From positions 1-64,000 of the forward strand of contig NZ_MRCC01000007.1 in assembly GCF_001904655.1 (NCBI RefSeq): a stretch of 64,000 nt of DNA, read 5' to 3'. Shown piece after piece: positions 37,928 through 56,332 of the stretch (position 1 is the first letter of the stretch; every line of letters starts with the position of its first letter). Below the pieces are notes generated by a model. The model was given only the letters and a program-made list of their open reading frames with translations. It was not told where the DNA came from and searched no databases. The translations under genes were made by a program, and so were the position numbers. This DNA is from Chroogloeocystis siderophila 5.2 s.c.1 (lineage in GTDB: Bacteria > Cyanobacteriota > Cyanobacteriia > Cyanobacteriales > Chroococcidiopsidaceae).

Positions 37928-38385
37928 GAAATAGCTCTCGGCAAAGGAGTATAGACATTAATCATAGATTAGCTACTACCTTTGAGCTATGTGTATGGCA
38001 ACTTATCTTCAAAGCATCACTCTAGACTTAGTTCTTTGGCAAGACGGCAAGGTATGCGATCACGATTTAGTCTGGGTGAACTACTTGCAAATTCATGCTT
38101 TGAGTAAAGGGTAAAAATAAATGTAACGTCAAGCCGGTAATTAATTAAGAATAATTACTCCCCACTATCCGTTTCCAAAATTAGCAAGGTGTCATTTCTA
38201 AATTAAAGCTGATTATTTAATGTGTAGTGTTCTTGCTAAACAGTCAGAATTTCTGTTACGCATTTAGCATTAAACTGAGTTCTGTATAGCCAGATTAGTA
38301 CAGGCTGGAGTTTCTTGGGGTGTCTACTCAAATTTTTGTAAATTAAAGCATTCAGGCATTCGGCAAAGGCTTATTTATTGTGTCT
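37928..38385. other. Intergenic region with one tentative 41-codon frame
   Basis: 458 bases between divergent genes. A frame at 37989-38114 (plus) reads MCMATYLQSITLDLVLW, then QDGKVCDHDLVWVNYLQ, for 41 codons. It has no clear ribosome binding site, and I do not recognise it. The rest shows no motif I can name. Confidence 0.45.
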
Positions 38386-47584: not shown

Positions 47585-49201
47585 TTAGCTATCGACTGTA
47601 ATAACCGGAATCGGACTCATTTCTAAAACGGCTTGTGAGACAGAACCAAGAATGACTTCTTCCCAAGTGCGGTGTCCCCGTTTACCGATAACAATATCTG
47701 TGACTTGACGTGCTTCGGCGACTTGAACGATCGCTTCTGGAACCGCACCAGATTGCGTGAGAAACTCATAGCGAATATCTGCAAGAAGTTGATTTGCTTT
47801 GCTTTTTAGTTCATCTAAGGCACGTTTATCTCCTAAGTTATCAACGTACAACACAATTACTTCACCGTTGCTGCGTCGTGATAAATCAGCCGCTTTGCGG
47901 AGGACTTGAATTGCCAGTGGAGAAGTATCTATTGCAGCTAAAAACACCGGACGACCTGTAACCGCAACTTTGGTCGGATCGACTTCGCCTTTTTCTAAAA
48001 GTTTGGGTGCGAACACTTGCGTTGCCCATGCACCAATGGGAGCCGTTGTCAAGATCGAAAGCGCGGCGATCGCCAAAATTATTTCGCCACCTTCAATTCC
48101 TGCGGCTAAAGGTAATGCACCAATTGCGGCTTGTACTGTCGCCTTTGCCATATTTCCTGGAAGTAAGAACACCTTTTCTTTCCAAGTCCAGTTACTGCCT
48201 AAGGTAGAGAAATACCAACCAATTCCACGACCAATAACTAAACTAAGTGTTAAAAGTAACAACCCAGGTAGCAAGATATTTCCTAACACCTGAAGCTGAA
48301 TAGTTGCTCCTAGTAATACAAATAAGACAATCTCTGCTATTGTCCACAATATGTCAAATCCACCGCGAATCAAACGTGCTAGGGGTGCATCAAATTCAAT
48401 TAAAAAGAACCCCATTGCCATCACAGCAAGATAACCAGAATAGTAGGGAAAGACTTCCGTAAAAAGCACAAGAAATAATGCTGCACCTGCTGCAATAATC
48501 ATGTCTTGAACAATATTGCGCGTCCAGTTTTGTTTAACCAGTACTAGCACCAATAAGCGAGCAAAAAGAAAACCTGCTGCTAGTCCTAAAACAATTTCTA
48601 GAACTACCTGAAACGGTAAAAGTTGTAAAGGAGTTAATGTAATAATCCCAAAAAGTGTGATTGCTTCCTCTCCCTGCTGCCCTAAAAAGTTAAGTAATAA
48701 GCTAAATACGAGCAAAAGTAAAACATCAGACAGCGCACTTCCGGTCAAGATTGCATCGGGTATTCCTTTAGCGACTCCCCAACCCAAGCTTTTCAGCCGC
48801 AACATTCCTGGTACAATAACTGCGGGTGATTCGGCTCCGACAACACAGCCTAACAGTAAGCCAGTCAAAAAATCAAAGTTAAATATAAACATCGACAAGA
48901 AAGCAACAACGACTGCTTCTGTTGACGCGGGGAGAAACCCTAATCTTAATGCTACGGTTCCTTGTTGTGCTAGCTTTTCTCGGTCTAACCCTAGTCCTGC
49001 CTTCATCAAGATAATCGTGACTGCAACTAACCGCAAGTCATCAGCTGCACCTATAACTTCAGGACTAATAAAATCTGCGAATTGCGGACCTATGGCAATG
49101 CCAACCAAAATCATACCAATTAGGGGTGGTGCTCCTAATCGTCGGGCAAGTTGTCCCGCAAAAAAGCCCATGAATAAAATCCACAACGCGCTGGCTAACA
49201 C
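47585..49201 (-). CDS. Cation/proton antiporter with fused UspA domain
   Basis: 538 residues from the GTG at 49201, chosen because AAGGAG precedes it by six bases; a TTG at 49216 is also in frame. Residues about 1-380 form 11-12 membrane helices of the CPA2/KefB type (AGQLARRLGAPPLIGMILVG, then GCVVGAESPAVIVPGML). The C-terminal 140 residues are a universal stress domain (RPVFLAAIDTSPLAIQVLRK) ending with the ATP-binding GKRGHRTWEEVILGSVSQ pattern. A fluoride riboswitch lies 90-143 bases upstream, so it is likely made when fluoride rises; it would exchange monovalent cations for protons, and the UspA part may gate it. Confidence 0.92.
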   Translation of the reverse strand: MLASALWILFMGFFAGQLARRLGAPPLIGMILVGIAIGPQFADFISPEVIGAADDLRLVAVTIILMKAGLGLDREKLAQQGTVALRLGFLPASTEAVVVAFLSMFIFNFDFLTGLLLGCVVGAESPAVIVPGMLRLKSLGWGVAKGIPDAILTGSALSDVLLLLVFSLLLNFLGQQGEEAITLFGIITLTPLQLLPFQVVLEIVLGLAAGFLFARLLVLVLVKQNWTRNIVQDMIIAAGAALFLVLFTEVFPYYSGYLAVMAMGFFLIEFDAPLARLIRGGFDILWTIAEIVLFVLLGATIQLQVLGNILLPGLLLLTLSLVIGRGIGWYFSTLGSNWTWKEKVFLLPGNMAKATVQAAIGALPLAAGIEGGEIILAIAALSILTTAPIGAWATQVFAPKLLEKGEVDPTKVAVTGRPVFLAAIDTSPLAIQVLRKAADLSRRSNGEVIVLYVDNLGDKRALDELKSKANQLLADIRYEFLTQSGAVPEAIVQVAEARQVTDIVIGKRGHRTWEEVILGSVSQAVLEMSPIPVITVDS

Positions 49202-49234
49202 TTCTTTCTCCTTCAAAAAAATACAACGATGATG

Positions 49235-49344
49235 TTGCCAGGAGTAAGAGAAGCGTTAACAGCAGTAGCCCTACCCTCTGGCAAGCCAGACTAGTAGGAG
49301 CCATCAGCCTGATCAATAGGCGGTTAGGGTGAGCTCCATCACCC
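49235..49344 (-). promoter_or_regulatory. Fluoride riboswitch (crcB motif) and its expression platform
   Basis: The aptamer spans 49291-49344. On the minus strand it reads GGGTGATGGAGCTCACCC, then TAACC, GCCTATTGATCAGGC and TGATGGCTCCTACTAG. P1 is GGGTGA/TCACCC and the second stem GCCT/AGGC. The loop GGAGC (49337-49333) pairs with GCTCC (49301-49297) as the known pseudoknot. These match the crcB-motif consensus closely. Downstream, CCTAC can pair with GTAGG (blocking the pseudoknot), and TTGCCAG can pair either within TCTGGCTTGCCAGA or with CTGGCAA (49241-49235), as expected of an expression platform. The ORF on the minus strand that crosses this region is spurious. Confidence 0.93.
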
Positions 49345-49385
49345 AGTTCAGAAGCAAGAATAACACAATTTTGTTCGCACTTCAC

Positions 49386-52143: not shown

Positions 52144-54699
52144 ATGCAACCAATTTACACATTCAACGTCTCGCCAGCTTTGCCGCCTCATTTAGAAAAA
52201 CTGCGGCAGCTTGCCTACAATATTCACTGGGACTGGAACACCGAAGCTAAAGACTTATTCCGCCGCTTAGATTTAGACCTTTGGGAATCGAGTCATCACA
52301 ATCCTGTTTTGATGCTAGGAACCATTAGTCAAACACGGCTGCAAGAAGTTGTGGAAGACGAAGGCTTTCTCGCACAAATGGATCGGGCGGCGCGTCAATT
52401 GGAAGAATATTTGCAAGAAGGAACTTGGTACGAAAGAAATCGAAGCCAGGAATCAGAATGTTATGCGTATTTTTCCGCCGAATTTGGCTTAGTTGATTGC
52501 TTACCAATCTATTCTGGAGGTTTGGGCGTTTTAGCAGGCGATCACCTCAAATCAGCTAGCGATTTAGGATTACCACTCGTAGGAGTTGGGCTACTGTACC
52601 AGCAAGGCTATTTTGCGCAGTATCTTAACCCTGATGGCTGGCAACAAGAACGTTACCCGATTAATGACTTCTATAACATGCCGCTGCATTTAGAGCGTCA
52701 TCCTGATGGTTCAGAGTTACGCATTGCGGTTCCTTATCCTGGACGTACCGTTTACGCGAGAGTATGGCGCGTGCAAGTAGGGAGGGTACCGCTTTACTTA
52801 CTCGATACCAATATTGAACCCAATAACCCTTACGACCACGACATCACCGACCAGTTATACGGTGGTGACATCGATATGCGCATCCACCAAGAAATTATGC
52901 TGGGAATTGGTGGGGTGTTGATGCTTAAGGCATTGGGTCATAAAGTGACAGCGTACCATATGAACGAAGGTCACTCGGCTTTTCTCACGTTAGAGCGGAT
53001 TCGTGGCTTAATGCAAGAAGGGCTAGATTATGCCACAGCAAGACAAGTCGTCATTTCGAGTAATATCTTTACTACCCACACTCCTGTACCTGCAGGAATT
53101 GACTTGTTTCCACCCGATAAAATTTTGTATTACTTGGGACATTATGCCGATGAGTTTGGATTATCCAAGGATCAATTTCTGGGGTTGGGACGAGAAAATA
53201 CGGGCGATCTCACTGCGCCCTTTAGTATGGCAGTTTTCGCGCTGAAAATGGCAACGTTTGCGAATGGTGTGTCAAAACTGCATGGTGTCGTATCACGCAA
53301 GATGTTTCAAGGCTTGTGGCGCAATTTACCGGAAGATGAAGTTCCGATTACCGCGATTACGAATGGCGTTCACGCGCGTAGTTGTGTTGCGAAATCAACG
53401 CAAGAATTATATGATCGCTATCTTGGTCCTACTTGGTCATCTGCACCAGCCGATCATCAACTTTGGGAACGTGTTGATGCGATCCCCGATGAAGAACTAT
53501 GGCGCAACCACGAACGCTGTAAGGTAGAAATGATTGTCGCGGTGCGCGAACACTTAGTCAAACATTTACGCGATCGCGGTGCTTCGCCAGCAGAAATTGC
53601 CTCTTCCCAAGAAGTTCTCGACCCCTCAACGCTGACGATTGGTTTCGCACGTCGCTTTGCAACTTATAAGCGCGCAACGCTGTGGATGCGGGACATCGAA
53701 AGGATCAAGCGCATTCTCATGGCAAATAAAGACCGTAAAGTCCAACTTGTTATTGCGGGTAAAGCGCATCCGAAAGATATTCCTGGTAAAGAACTGATCC
53801 GTGATATTAATCACTTTATTCAGGAACATGGTGTAGAAAAGCAAGTTGTCTTTGTGCCTAACTATGACATTCACATCGCCCGTTTACTCGTCGCGGGTTG
53901 CGATGTATGGTTAAATACACCGCGCCGTCCTAGAGAGGCTTCGGGTACAAGTGGAATGAAAGCAGCGATGAACGGATTACTGAACCTTAGTGTCCTTGAT
54001 GGTTGGTGGGATGAAGCTGATTATGTGCGCACAGGCTGGGCAATAGGACACGGTGAATCTTACGACGATCCTCATTATCAAGATGAGGTCGAAGCCAATG
54101 CTGTTTATGAGTTACTCGAAAAAGAAGTTGTCCCTTTGTTCTATAACCGCGATGCTGATGGGCTACCGCGCCAATGGCTTGCCAAGATGAAAGCCGCAAT
54201 TCGTTACAACTGTCCCGTCTTTAATACCGCGCGGATGGTGCGCGATTATGCAACAAAAGCCTATTTCCCCGCAAGCGATCGCTACTATACTTTGAGTGCG
54301 AATCACTACTCTCCTGCACGCGAGTTAGCGCAGTGGAAAGTGAATCTTCTCGATTGCTGGTTTAATATCAAAATTGTCAATATTGATATTGCTGCGAGTT
54401 CGGATGTGCAAGTCAATCAAAATATCTCGGTAAAAGCCCAAATTGACTTGGCTAATCTCTCGCCAGAAGATGTGCAGGTAGAACTTTATCAAGGTGCAGT
54501 TGATGCGAGTGGCGAAATTGTGAACGGAATTGCGCATGAAATGAATTTCCAAGGTCGCGATCAACAAGGCCATAGCATTTATACTGGCACGATTACTTAT
54601 ACAACTTCCGGTTTACAGGGCTTGTCGTTGCGTGTTCTACCCAAGCACGCCTTGCTTTCGAGTCCGTATGAACCTAGGGTGATTATGTGGGCAGGTTAG
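52144..54699 (+). CDS. glgP: Alpha-glucan (glycogen) phosphorylase
   Basis: 851 residues, of the shorter bacterial/archaeal alpha-glucan phosphorylase type (family GT35). It begins MQPIYTFNVSPALPPHLEKL and has the HSAFLTLERIR region, an EVPITAITNGVHA stretch, TIGFARRFATYKRATL and the PLP-binding lysine region EASGTSGMKAAMNGLLNLSV. It removes glucose-1-phosphate from glycogen in the cytosol. The C-terminal 100 residues look like a separate beta-rich domain. It ends inside the convergent DUF429 gene (17-base overlap). No other glycogen gene is nearby. Confidence 0.94.
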   Translation: MQPIYTFNVSPALPPHLEKLRQLAYNIHWDWNTEAKDLFRRLDLDLWESSHHNPVLMLGTISQTRLQEVVEDEGFLAQMDRAARQLEEYLQEGTWYERNRSQESECYAYFSAEFGLVDCLPIYSGGLGVLAGDHLKSASDLGLPLVGVGLLYQQGYFAQYLNPDGWQQERYPINDFYNMPLHLERHPDGSELRIAVPYPGRTVYARVWRVQVGRVPLYLLDTNIEPNNPYDHDITDQLYGGDIDMRIHQEIMLGIGGVLMLKALGHKVTAYHMNEGHSAFLTLERIRGLMQEGLDYATARQVVISSNIFTTHTPVPAGIDLFPPDKILYYLGHYADEFGLSKDQFLGLGRENTGDLTAPFSMAVFALKMATFANGVSKLHGVVSRKMFQGLWRNLPEDEVPITAITNGVHARSCVAKSTQELYDRYLGPTWSSAPADHQLWERVDAIPDEELWRNHERCKVEMIVAVREHLVKHLRDRGASPAEIASSQEVLDPSTLTIGFARRFATYKRATLWMRDIERIKRILMANKDRKVQLVIAGKAHPKDIPGKELIRDINHFIQEHGVEKQVVFVPNYDIHIARLLVAGCDVWLNTPRRPREASGTSGMKAAMNGLLNLSVLDGWWDEADYVRTGWAIGHGESYDDPHYQDEVEANAVYELLEKEVVPLFYNRDADGLPRQWLAKMKAAIRYNCPVFNTARMVRDYATKAYFPASDRYYTLSANHYSPARELAQWKVNLLDCWFNIKIVNIDIAASSDVQVNQNISVKAQIDLANLSPEDVQVELYQGAVDASGEIVNGIAHEMNFQGRDQQGHSIYTGTITYTTSGLQGLSLRVLPKHALLSSPYEPRVIMWAG

Positions 54700-55435
54700 G
54701 CGTTACTCTCATCGGCACCACAATGTAACCTGTTGTGCGATCGCCGAGTACTAGATTTCGTTCGGTTCCCCAGTACCACCAATAAGCGGCTACATAAGCA
54801 CAGATGAGGCTATCGAGTTTGTCTTCGAGTGCTTTGAGGGCTGCTGTGGTGCTGGGAATTTCTTGGGGAAACGAACCACAGAGGCATAAAGAACACAAAC
54901 AAGGAAATAATGTAGGGAGGGTGGTGAGAATGTGTTGGTGAAGCTTGATGAGTTCTAGACGGCGATCGCTGAGGCGTCCTTTTTTGTATTTGAGGATGCG
55001 GTTGAGGTTGAATAAGTGAACGATCGCCGGATGGGGGAAAACTTCAATTTGGTATCTTCCGAGTTTTTGTGGCTCGATTTGCGGGGCGTGGATGAAGCCT
55101 CTGGCTTCGAGTTCTAAGCCGAAGTTGATCGTACGTTGGGCAAAGGCTAAACTTTGGTTGGCTGGGTAGCATCCTGCGTGGTATTTACCAAAGTATTTGT
55201 GCGTGAGTTTGTCGGGTAAACGCGTTCCTGTCGCGTTGGGGATGATGGTGGGGGCGTCTACGGCTACGATCACCGGTGCGTCGGGTTCTACTTGGGTATC
55301 AATCCAGGTAAAAATATCGGCAATCGCTTCTTTTCGGTCTAAATCTACAAGTTGTAACTTTCGATTTTGCCACTCTAGACAACATAAACCACTCGGTTGC
55401 GATCGCCACCCGAAATCGATTCCTATAAACCTCAT
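54683..55435 (-). CDS. DUF429 family protein
   Basis: 250 residues from MRFIGIDFGWRSQPSGLCCLEW (55435); ATG at 55468 adds 11 unlikely residues. DUF429 proteins share an RNase H-like fold: FIGIDFGW, VAVDAPTIIPNATGTRLPDKL, YQIEVFPHPAIVHLFNL and the late ALEDKLDSLICAYVAAY. Function is unproven; nuclease or Holliday-junction-like activity is a family guess. About 13 residues (CLCSLCLCGSFPQ) are encoded by a repeat (ACGAACCACAGAGGCATAAA, 54871-54890) in mid-protein. It ends inside the phosphorylase gene. The manganese riboswitch starts 52 bases from its start, on the other strand. Confidence 0.85.
   Translation of the reverse strand: MRFIGIDFGWRSQPSGLCCLEWQNRKLQLVDLDRKEAIADIFTWIDTQVEPDAPVIVAVDAPTIIPNATGTRLPDKLTHKYFGKYHAGCYPANQSLAFAQRTINFGLELEARGFIHAPQIEPQKLGRYQIEVFPHPAIVHLFNLNRILKYKKGRLSDRRLELIKLHQHILTTLPTLFPCLCSLCLCGSFPQEIPSTTAALKALEDKLDSLICAYVAAYWWYWGTERNLVLGDRTTGYIVVPMRVTPNLPT
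54868..54907. repeat. Short repeat inside the DUF429 gene
   Basis: GAAACGAACCACAGAGGCAT and AAAGAACACAAACAAGGAA resemble a repeat often seen between cyanobacterial genes. It reads in frame as CLCSLCLCGSF, rich in Cys and Leu, unlike the rest of the protein. Confidence 0.5.
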
Positions 55436-55486
55436 TTTAGTATTTTCTTGAAATCTATCGAAAGACATAGTAGACTAAACCTAGTT

Positions 55487-55615
55487 TGAAGGGGAGTAGC
55501 TACTGACACACCGTTTTGTCAGTACACTTGAATCAACACACTGGCGTATAAGCCTGGTTCAGGTGACAATTTAGCAACTAGCATCGAGCGCGCTAATTTG
55601 GAAGTGAGACCTTCA
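55487..55615 (+). promoter_or_regulatory. yybP-ykoY manganese riboswitch aptamer
   Basis: The 5' signature GGGGAGTAGC (55491-55500) and 3' signature GTGAGACC (55604-55611) are both exact. The closing stem is TGAAGG (55487-55492) with CCTTCA (55610-55615). Between are a hairpin TACTGACA/TGTCAGTA (55501-55508 with 55517-55524) and a second arm CTTGAA...TTCAGG. This is the manganese-sensing class usually found before manganese exporters, as here. Confidence 0.9.
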
Positions 55616-55637
55616 CTAAGTTCACAGCAGTTAATGT

Positions 55638-55704
55638 GAGCTTGGTGGGGTCTTTTGGCTGTCATCAAGCTCTCTAGCCATTAGTCTAGTTTGAGGAGCT
55701 TGAT
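55638..55704 (+). promoter_or_regulatory. Expression platform of the manganese riboswitch
   Basis: GAGCTTGGTG (55638-55647) pairs with CATCAAGCTC (55663-55672; one G-U). The same ATCAAGCTC (55664-55672) is perfectly complementary to GAGCTTGAT (55696-55704), which overlaps the GAGGAG ribosome binding site before the GTG start. The two hairpins cannot coexist, so one exposes and the other hides the site. A translational switch fits; no T-run follows either hairpin. Confidence 0.75.
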
Positions 55705-55708
55705 TCAG

Positions 55709-56332
55709 GTGCTATCTGCATTTATCGCGGGCTTTTTACTCATTGCCGTTTCTGAGCTAGGAGATAAAACATTCTTTATCGCCGCAATTTTAGCGATGCG
55801 TCACTCGCGCAGGCTGATTTTTGCTGCTGTAGTGGCGGCTTTAGCCGCAATGACGGTGCTATCTGTCCTTGTCGGACAAGTTGCGTCTTTGCTGCCACCA
55901 AATTACATTTATTACGCTGAAATCGTTTTGTTTATTGGCTTTGGTTTTAAACTGCTGTACGATGCGAGTAAAATGCCAGCGAATACGTGTGATGCTGAAG
56001 TTGTCCAAGAGGCGGCAGACATTGTTGACAAAGCCGAAGGACATCTATCTCAGCAAACGAATTGGGCAATTTGTGTCGAAGCTTTTGTTTTGACATTTCT
56101 CGCCGAATGGGGCGATCGCACGCAAATCGCGACTATCGCTTTGGCCGCAGGCAATAATCCTTTTGGGGTAACGACAGGTGCCATTTTAGGTCATGCGCTT
56201 TGTGCGGCGATCGCCGTCATTGGTGGCAGAATACTTGCTGGACGAATATCCGAGCAAGCATTGACAATCTTTGGTGGATGCTTGTTTTTACTCTTTGGGT
56301 TAGTCGCGTGCTGGGAAGGACCTCTTAGTTAG
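55709..56332 (+). CDS. mnx: UPF0016/GDT1 family manganese exporter
   Basis: 207 residues from the GTG at 55709, which has GAGGAG ten bases upstream; TTG codons at 55691 and 55700 are in frame. Two copies of the hallmark motif occur, AVSELGDKTFFIAAILAMRHSR and FLAEWGDRTQIATIALAAGN, so both halves of the six- to seven-helix transporter are present. In Synechocystis the homologue (Mnx) exports manganese across the thylakoid membrane. The manganese riboswitch upstream supports the same role here. The stop overlaps the convergent TPR gene by eight bases. Confidence 0.93.
   Translation: MLSAFIAGFLLIAVSELGDKTFFIAAILAMRHSRRLIFAAVVAALAAMTVLSVLVGQVASLLPPNYIYYAEIVLFIGFGFKLLYDASKMPANTCDAEVVQEAADIVDKAEGHLSQQTNWAICVEAFVLTFLAEWGDRTQIATIALAAGNNPFGVTTGAILGHALCAAIAVIGGRILAGRISEQALTIFGGCLFLLFGLVACWEGPLS

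What the first reader, a model, noticed from the sequence alone, without database searches (positions are those of the whole stretch)
55487..55711. Manganese riboswitch with two mutually exclusive hairpins over the start of the UPF0016 gene
The yybP-ykoY aptamer signatures are exact. ATCAAGCTC (55664-55672) can pair upstream (55638-55647) or downstream with GAGCTTGAT (55696-55704), which overlaps the ribosome binding site of the likely GTG start. This gives an explicit sequence model for translational control of a thylakoid manganese exporter, which matters because manganese is needed for the photosystem II cluster but is toxic in excess.
Basis: partly seen in the sequence, partly recalled or inferred. 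Interest (0 to 1): 0.66.

Follow-up and report, generated by a model that had tools for sequence, protein, structure and literature searches.

The report
Cyanobacterial manganese riboswitch with strand relay
The RNA just ahead of a manganese-exporter gene in this cyanobacterium looks like a manganese sensor coupled to four mutually pairing segments that hide or expose the translation start, a layout kept by matching mutations across many cyanobacteria but below the standard RNA database's cut-off.

Summary
Window 55487-55711 is a manganese (yybP-ykoY) type riboswitch leader directly before a GDT1/UPF0016 (Mnx-like) gene. Rfam RF00080 matches at 26.6 bits, below its cut-off of 45, and 0 of 386 genomes of the phylum reach that cut-off. 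A covariance model built here finds the leader directly upstream of the exporter in 60 of the 92 phylum genomes that hold the exporter.

A third helix, A:B, contains the 3' strand of aptamer helix P1 and links the sensor to the start site. All three helices are kept by compensatory change, also between one representative each of 17 families (0 of 10,000 permutations each), while three control pairings are not.

Best model: without Mn, A:B leaves C to cover the Shine-Dalgarno in D; with Mn, P1 takes part of A, B captures C, and D is free. Nearest-neighbour folding supports this only as a co-transcriptional decision made before D is synthesised; in the window itself the effect is brief and weak. 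Mn binding and translational control are inferred, not shown.

The parts
55448..55476 (+). promoter-like site TTGAAA-17-TAGACT, just upstream of the aptamer
   Evidence: consensus scan only, 9 of 12 matches; 2 found in the region vs 0.6 expected
55487..55492 (+). P1 5' strand (UGAAGG)
   Evidence: pairs with 55610-55615; inner five pairs formed in 67 of 67 rows, one of them with a compensatory change GC>AU in one row
55493..55500 (+). L1 5' strand (GGAGUAGC)
   Evidence: matches the RF00080 consensus, nearly invariant in relatives
55501..55524 (+). P2 hairpin (55501-55507 with 55518-55524)
   Evidence: 93.8% of cells paired, 3 of 7 pairs with double changes
55525..55565 (+). P3 arm: 55525-55535 with 55555-55565, L3 bulge 55536-55542 (ACACACU), P3.2 55543-55545 with 55552-55554; 55538 is the likely equivalent of the Mn-sensing adenine
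   Evidence: 99.3% of P3 cells paired, 6 of 11 pairs with double changes; L3 against Rfam consensus; equivalence to A48 inferred from PMC6754395
55566..55603 (+). variable P4 arm
   Evidence: length varies widely in relatives; pairing seen in single-sequence fold only
55606..55626 (+). segment A: L1 3' strand and P1 3' strand (55610-55615) plus extension; 5' arm of A:B
   Evidence: GAGAC(C/T)UUCAC present in 80 of 80 related loci; A:B covariation
55635..55654 (+). segment B: 3' arm of A:B, alternative partner of C
55663..55672 (+). segment C: pairs with B (55638-55647) or with D
   Evidence: B:C 93.5% paired, 6 pairs and 42 cells with double changes, 0 of 500 shuffles for cells
55693..55704 (+). 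segment D: Shine-Dalgarno GAGGAG (55693-55698) and GAGCUUGAU (55696-55704), pairs with C
   Evidence: C:D 89.2% paired, 4 pairs and 16 cells with double changes
55709..56332 (+). GDT1/UPF0016 (Mnx-like) exporter gene, GTG start
   Evidence: PF01169 GDT1, E 2.3e-46; start codon aligned with GTG/ATG/TTG of relatives

Best explanation
It is a divergent, cyanobacterial Mn2+ riboswitch of the yybP-ykoY class that turns translation of an Mnx-type manganese exporter on when Mn2+ is high. The aptamer's P1 3' strand is the first part of segment A. Without Mn2+, A pairs with B (20 bp), C is left to pair with D, and D holds the Shine-Dalgarno: off. With Mn2+, docking of L1 and L3 stabilises P1, which removes the outer part of A:B and exposes the 3' half of B; C, transcribed next, pairs with B, so that D emerges with nothing to cover it: on. 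The decision is probably made while RNA polymerase is between C and D. Shown by computation: presence, conservation, covariation of all three helices, mutual exclusivity, position of D over the Shine-Dalgarno. Inferred: Mn2+ as ligand, direction (on), action on translation, co-transcriptional timing.
For: RF00080 sub-threshold hit at the right place. L1 and L3 core, P1, P2 and P3 covariation: 95.6% of cells paired, 11 pairs and 66 cells with double changes, 0 of 500 shuffles. Target is a GDT1 Mn/cation exporter. Model R1 lies directly before the exporter in 60 of 92 exporter genomes. A:B, B:C and C:D native duplexes beat swapped ones, z -9.7, -8.7, -9.2 in 41 leaders, and z -6.7, -5.8, -6.3 with one leader per family, 17 families; A:C, B:D and A:D do not (z -0.5 to 1.3). 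With B:C enforced, the cost of opening the Shine-Dalgarno falls from a median of 8.4 to 2.2 kcal/mol, lower in 38 of 38 leaders scored; 3 of 41 had no scorable Shine-Dalgarno and were dropped. In transcripts cut before D, at least 6 expected B:C pairs form in 13 of 92 leaders with A free and in 91 of 92 with the first nine bases of A blocked as in P1. E. coli mntP works as a translational on-switch of the same class (PMC11647493, passages).
Against: Score is below Rfam's curated cut-off. In the complete leader of the window, P1 plus remaining A:B plus C:D is more stable than P1 plus B:C by about 2.5 kcal/mol, and across 38 leaders enforcing B:C costs a median of 5.7 kcal/mol over the best P1-bound ensemble; full-length leaders with P1 reach 6 B:C pairs in only 17 of 92. 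The window is the one leader of 92 below 6 pairs even when cut before D (4.3 pairs), with B:C dominant only while the 3' end is near 55671-55679. 32 of 92 exporter genomes lack an R1 match. No experiment.
Confidence: 0.74

Rival explanations
1. A:B is an intrinsic terminator and the switch acts on transcription; the downstream pairings matter little.
For: The terminator scan calls 55611-55650 with tail TCTTTTGGCT. A run of four or more U near the hairpin end is present in 56 of 116 leaders. Hits in genomes of another class of the phylum (L166-L170) have GC-rich hairpins followed by U-runs, as in classical yybP-ykoY terminators. Terminators are the known platform in Xanthomonas and Lactococcus (PMC6754395, PMC11087558, passages).
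Against: 60 of 116 leaders have no U-run of four and only 7 have five or more. It gives no reason for B:C and C:D to be kept by compensation, nor for D to cover the Shine-Dalgarno.
Confidence: 0.14
2. Only A:B and C:D are functional, as two duplicated hairpins; B:C is a by-product of A resembling C and B resembling D.
For: The four segments are by necessity imperfect repeats, so pairing of B with C follows partly from the other two helices. Equilibrium folds favour A:B plus C:D.
Against: B:C has the most double changes of the three helices, 42 cells, and native B:C beats swapped B:C between 14 lineages, 0 of 10,000. Tree-aware single-column tests had too few independent events to decide.
Confidence: 0.08
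3. The aptamer senses another divalent metal or has lost ligand binding and is a fixed leader.
For: Sub-threshold score everywhere in the phylum sample; L3 base change U to C in this window.
Against: The adenine expected to contact Mn2+ is invariant in 67 rows, helices covary, and the target is a GDT1 exporter in all 60 in-class genomes with the leader.
Confidence: 0.04

Closest known systems
yybP-ykoY Mn2+ riboswitch (Rfam RF00080), e.g. Xanthomonas oryzae and Lactococcus lactis
   Same: L1 and L3 consensus loops, P1/P2/P3 layout, 3' GAGACC strand of L1/P1 shared with a competing hairpin, Mn exporter-type target (PMC6754395 passages)
   Different: Scores below the RF00080 cut-off in all 386 phylum genomes sampled; platform is not a conserved terminator but a four-strand relay to the Shine-Dalgarno
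E. coli mntP translational Mn2+ riboswitch
   Same: Same aptamer class, Mn-dependent exposure of the ribosome binding site upstream of a Mn exporter (PMC11647493 passages)
   Different: Unrelated exporter family; the cyanobacterial anti-/anti-anti-Shine-Dalgarno relay is conserved across families here; mntP platform strands were not compared in any call
Four-strand attenuators of the trp type (recalled)
   Same: Three overlapping helices 1:2, 2:3 and 3:4, with the decision taken during transcription
   Different: Signal is a metal aptamer, output is the translation start

Membership tests
RF00080 (yybP-ykoY, Manganese) | Score at or above Rfam gathering cut-off of 45 bits | tested here: not met
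   26.6 bits; 0 of 386 phylum genomes over cut-off. It is therefore filed as a divergent variant that works like the class, not as an accepted Rfam member
RF00080 (yybP-ykoY, Manganese) | L1 GGGGAGUAGC | tested here: met
   55491-55500 exact
RF00080 (yybP-ykoY, Manganese) | L3 with invariant Mn-contacting adenine between P3.1 and P3.2 | tested here: met
   L3 ACACACU at 55536-55542; adenine 55538 invariant in 67 rows, the neighbouring U is C here; equivalence to A48 inferred from PMC6754395
RF00080 (yybP-ykoY, Manganese) | P1 switch helix whose 3' strand is shared with the competing hairpin | tested here: met
   UGAAGG/CCUUCA and A:B
RF00080 (yybP-ykoY, Manganese) | Four-way junction with P4 | tested here: inconclusive
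   P4 arm varies in length and was not counted; seen only in the single-sequence fold
RF00080 (yybP-ykoY, Manganese) | Binds Mn2+ and changes fold | not testable with these tools
   needs probing
Translational on-switch (Shine-Dalgarno sequestration) | Alternative helices that cover or release the Shine-Dalgarno, kept by compensation | tested here: met
Intrinsic-terminator riboswitch | Competing hairpin followed by a conserved U-run | tested here: not met
   U-run of four or more in 56 of 116 leaders, five or more in 7
GDT1 / UPF0016 exporter | PF01169 domain above cut-off | tested here: met
   156.5 bits vs 27

The most novel reading that the evidence does not exclude
Many cyanobacteria control their Mnx-type manganese exporter by a protein-free, kinetically timed switch: a Mn2+ aptamer frees a toehold in strand B during a short transcription window, C is captured, and the Shine-Dalgarno emerges open. 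Lineages that lack it may use a DNA operator with 11-base ATGA repeats instead. This would be a second cyanobacterial Mn sensing route beside ManS/ManR, acting on translation so that mRNA levels stay flat.
Probability: 0.45. Interest if true: 0.66.

Novelty: new variant of a known kind. Interest (0 to 1): 0.55.

Why it matters
Manganese is the metal of the photosystem II cluster and toxic in excess. The 2024 study PMC11649195 (passages read) says that little is known about Mn-dependent regulation in cyanobacteria beyond ManSR, and reports that mnx transcript did not change under Mn excess in Synechocystis. A translational riboswitch would explain such a pattern in species that have it; whether Synechocystis itself has it I could not establish. 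The finding gives exact strands to mutate, a covariance model that detects the leader where Rfam's cut-off does not, and a test of whether a four-strand switch decides during transcription.

Tried and rejected
Rejected: an artefact of short self-complementary AGCT motifs. The swap test with control pairings argues against it. Rejected as the sole mechanism: transcription termination. Rejected: the weak RF00080 hits at window 38030-38175 and on contig C15 (E 1.2 and 2.4), taken as chance.

Led nowhere: NCBIfam gave no family for the exporter. Single-column independent-pair tests on a tree of the coding sequences found too few independent events per column to decide in the part of the output that was shown (it was cut); a few columns of C:D had pairs going the other way. 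The family-level swap test was used instead. Two first versions of a coordinate script missed rows because of my own pattern errors (corrected). In some searches the start codon of L161 was mis-set; it was corrected for only as to the segments used, and its row should be ignored. In one search, 3 of 41 leaders (L160, L161, L163) were dropped for lack of a scorable Shine-Dalgarno. Literature searches for a described cyanobacterial Mn riboswitch. They found no description of this leader or platform in the open-access library, but the 2013 RegPrecise paper PMC3766115 (passages read) lists yybP-ykoY as present in over 75% of its taxonomic groups and reports 11 cyanobacterial regulogs; I could not see whether yybP-ykoY is among them, and the two founding papers (Dambach 2015, Price 2015) are not held. 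PMC7380456 (passages) says 328 of 333 screened bacterial strains with a UPF0016 gene have it under this riboswitch, so the aptamer in cyanobacteria may already have been listed somewhere.

Full report
Observation. Rfam at curated thresholds lists only a fluoride riboswitch in the whole window. A permissive scan of 55450-55760 gives RF00080 at 55490-55599, 26.6 bits against a gathering score of 45. In the whole genome the same family gives four matches at E up to 10, of which two are credible: this one (E 1.8e-4) and a second on contig C23 (E 3.8e-7). The gene at 55709-56332 is a GDT1/UPF0016 protein, PF01169 at 156.5 bits. The second copy, L001, also precedes a gene that reads as a GDT1 protein and has the same aptamer and A:B hairpin.

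Relatives. A search with the exporter in genome contigs found 431 relatives, of which the best 80 were kept; 80 of 80 have GAGAC(C/T)UUCAC within 200 bases of the start. With the window and 11 further leaders this gave alignment A1 of 92 platforms. 67 leaders from P1 to the end of A:B gave A2; identical leaders, a number of near-identical ones and most leaders with a long P4 had been left out of the 90 collected.

Anatomy. P1 (UGAAGG/CCUUCA), P2 and P3 with the L3 bulge: 27 pairs, 95.6% of cells paired, 11 pairs and 66 cells with changes on both sides, 0 of 500 shuffles as high. The outermost P1 pair is absent in 46 of 67 rows, so P1 is usually five pairs. The published 3' strand of L1/P1.1 in Xanthomonas is GAGACCAGGGAU (PMC6754395, passages), which corresponds to GAGACCUUCACU here. 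Downstream lie four segments: A 55606-55626, B 55635-55654, C 55663-55672, D 55693-55704. Counts on A1: A:B 93.3% paired, 6 pairs and 19 cells with double changes; B:C 93.5%, 6 pairs and 42 cells; C:D 89.2%, 4 pairs and 16 cells, but its outermost pair fails in 58 of 83 rows and the number of pair types is not beyond shuffles (82 of 500). Versions with the partner slid by 1-3 columns pair 31.7-46.0% (A:B), 29.6-53.9% (B:C) and 6.7-58.6% (C:D).

Distribution. Model R1, built from A2, has a match at E up to 0.01 in 63 of 386 phylum genomes: 48 of the same order, 12 others of the same class, 3 of other classes. The exporter is found in 92 of 386. All 60 in-class R1 genomes are among them, and comparing the coordinates of the two tables puts the leader directly upstream of the exporter in each. 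Of the 32 exporter genomes without a match, 20 were fetched, and with filters off the best score is 11.7 bits, on the wrong strand; 12 were not looked at. RF00080 itself gives sub-threshold matches in 50 of 386 and none over the cut-off. The hits outside the class (L166-L170) precede other genes and show U-run terminators.

Independence. To avoid counting inherited changes, duplex energies of native and swapped segments were compared. In 41 diverse leaders A:B, B:C and C:D are better than swapped (z -9.7, -8.7, -9.2; 0 of 5000 each) and A:C, B:D, A:D are not (z -1.2, 1.3, 1.6). With one leader per family (17 families) z is -6.7, -5.8, -6.3, and in 14 lineages after removing three similar ones -6.3, -5.1, -5.6, 0 of 10,000 each; controls lie between -0.5 and 1.3. 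Striking cases: L163 has B GGGCUAGG, C CCAGCCC, D GGGUUGG; L146 and its like have C CAUGCCUACUC and D GGAGUAAAGCAUG, so that the start codon itself is in the helix.

Mechanism. The free leader folds with A:B and C:D formed and the Shine-Dalgarno mostly paired. Enforcing P1 costs about 12 kcal/mol without tertiary or metal terms, and then remaining A:B with C:D still beats B:C by 2.5 kcal/mol in the window. Blocking the first nine bases of A lowers the Shine-Dalgarno opening cost in 75 of 92 leaders (median 8.8 to 5.8), but only from 8.4 to 7.9 in the window. Where B:C is enforced the cost falls to a median of 2.2, lower in 38 of 38 scored leaders, but B:C itself costs a median of 5.7 kcal/mol. 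The picture changes when the transcript ends before D: B:C reaches six expected pairs in 13 of 92 leaders with A free and 91 of 92 with A blocked (15 and 39 of 41 in the diverse set, one row mis-set); in full leaders the numbers are 2 and 17 of 92 (0 and 20 of 41). The one of 92 that stays below six is the window, where B:C dominates only while the 3' end is at about 55671-55679. I therefore propose a decision during transcription and mark it as inferred.

Transcription or translation. A terminator scan does call the A:B hairpin, and about half of the leaders have four U near its end, but 60 of 116 do not. D covers the Shine-Dalgarno or start region in the leaders compared. A mixed mode in some species is not excluded.

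Context in print. PMC11649195 (passages) contrasts heterotrophs, which use MntR and the yybP-ykoY riboswitch, with cyanobacteria, where only ManSR is known, and reports unchanged mnx transcript in Synechocystis under Mn excess. PMC7020235 (passages) does not mention riboswitches. No described cyanobacterial Mn riboswitch was found in searches of an open-access library, but the founding papers are not held and RegPrecise may list it. The aptamer in cyanobacteria may therefore not be new; the conserved four-strand platform is the part I could not find.

Noticed in passing
window 49288-49352 (-): Fluoride riboswitch RF01734, 57.2 bits, upstream of a 543-aa membrane protein at 47585-49216 (-) that looks like a cation/proton antiporter with a C-terminal universal-stress-type domain (domain names recalled).
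   Followed up: partly
L001 (contig C23), - strand, aptamer core at position 613 of the reverse complement: Second copy of the same riboswitch leader before a second GDT1-like gene in the same genome; C and D differ from the window's but still pair.
   Followed up: partly
L203, L206-L209, L211-L213 upstream of the exporter; L001 upstream of the aptamer: ATGA repeats at 11-base spacing (12 pairs at 11, 7 at 22, 5 at 33) in 8 of 20 leaderless exporter promoters, against 2 of 80 loci with the leader, and upstream of the L001 copy: a candidate DNA operator that may replace the riboswitch.
   Followed up: partly
L166-L170: In genomes of other classes of the phylum, Mn-type aptamers precede other genes (TerC-like, exchanger-like, small secreted-looking proteins; names recalled from sequence) and end in classical U-run terminators.
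   Followed up: no
L160 (G181 contig C2) and G031: Exporter copies that look broken: the second copy in G181 meets a stop in that frame shortly after ELGDKTFF, and the G031 match contains one TGA.
   Followed up: no
window 54683-55468 (-): A DUF429 protein gene is divergently transcribed from the riboswitch gene, with a short intergenic region that holds the promoter-like site.
   Followed up: no
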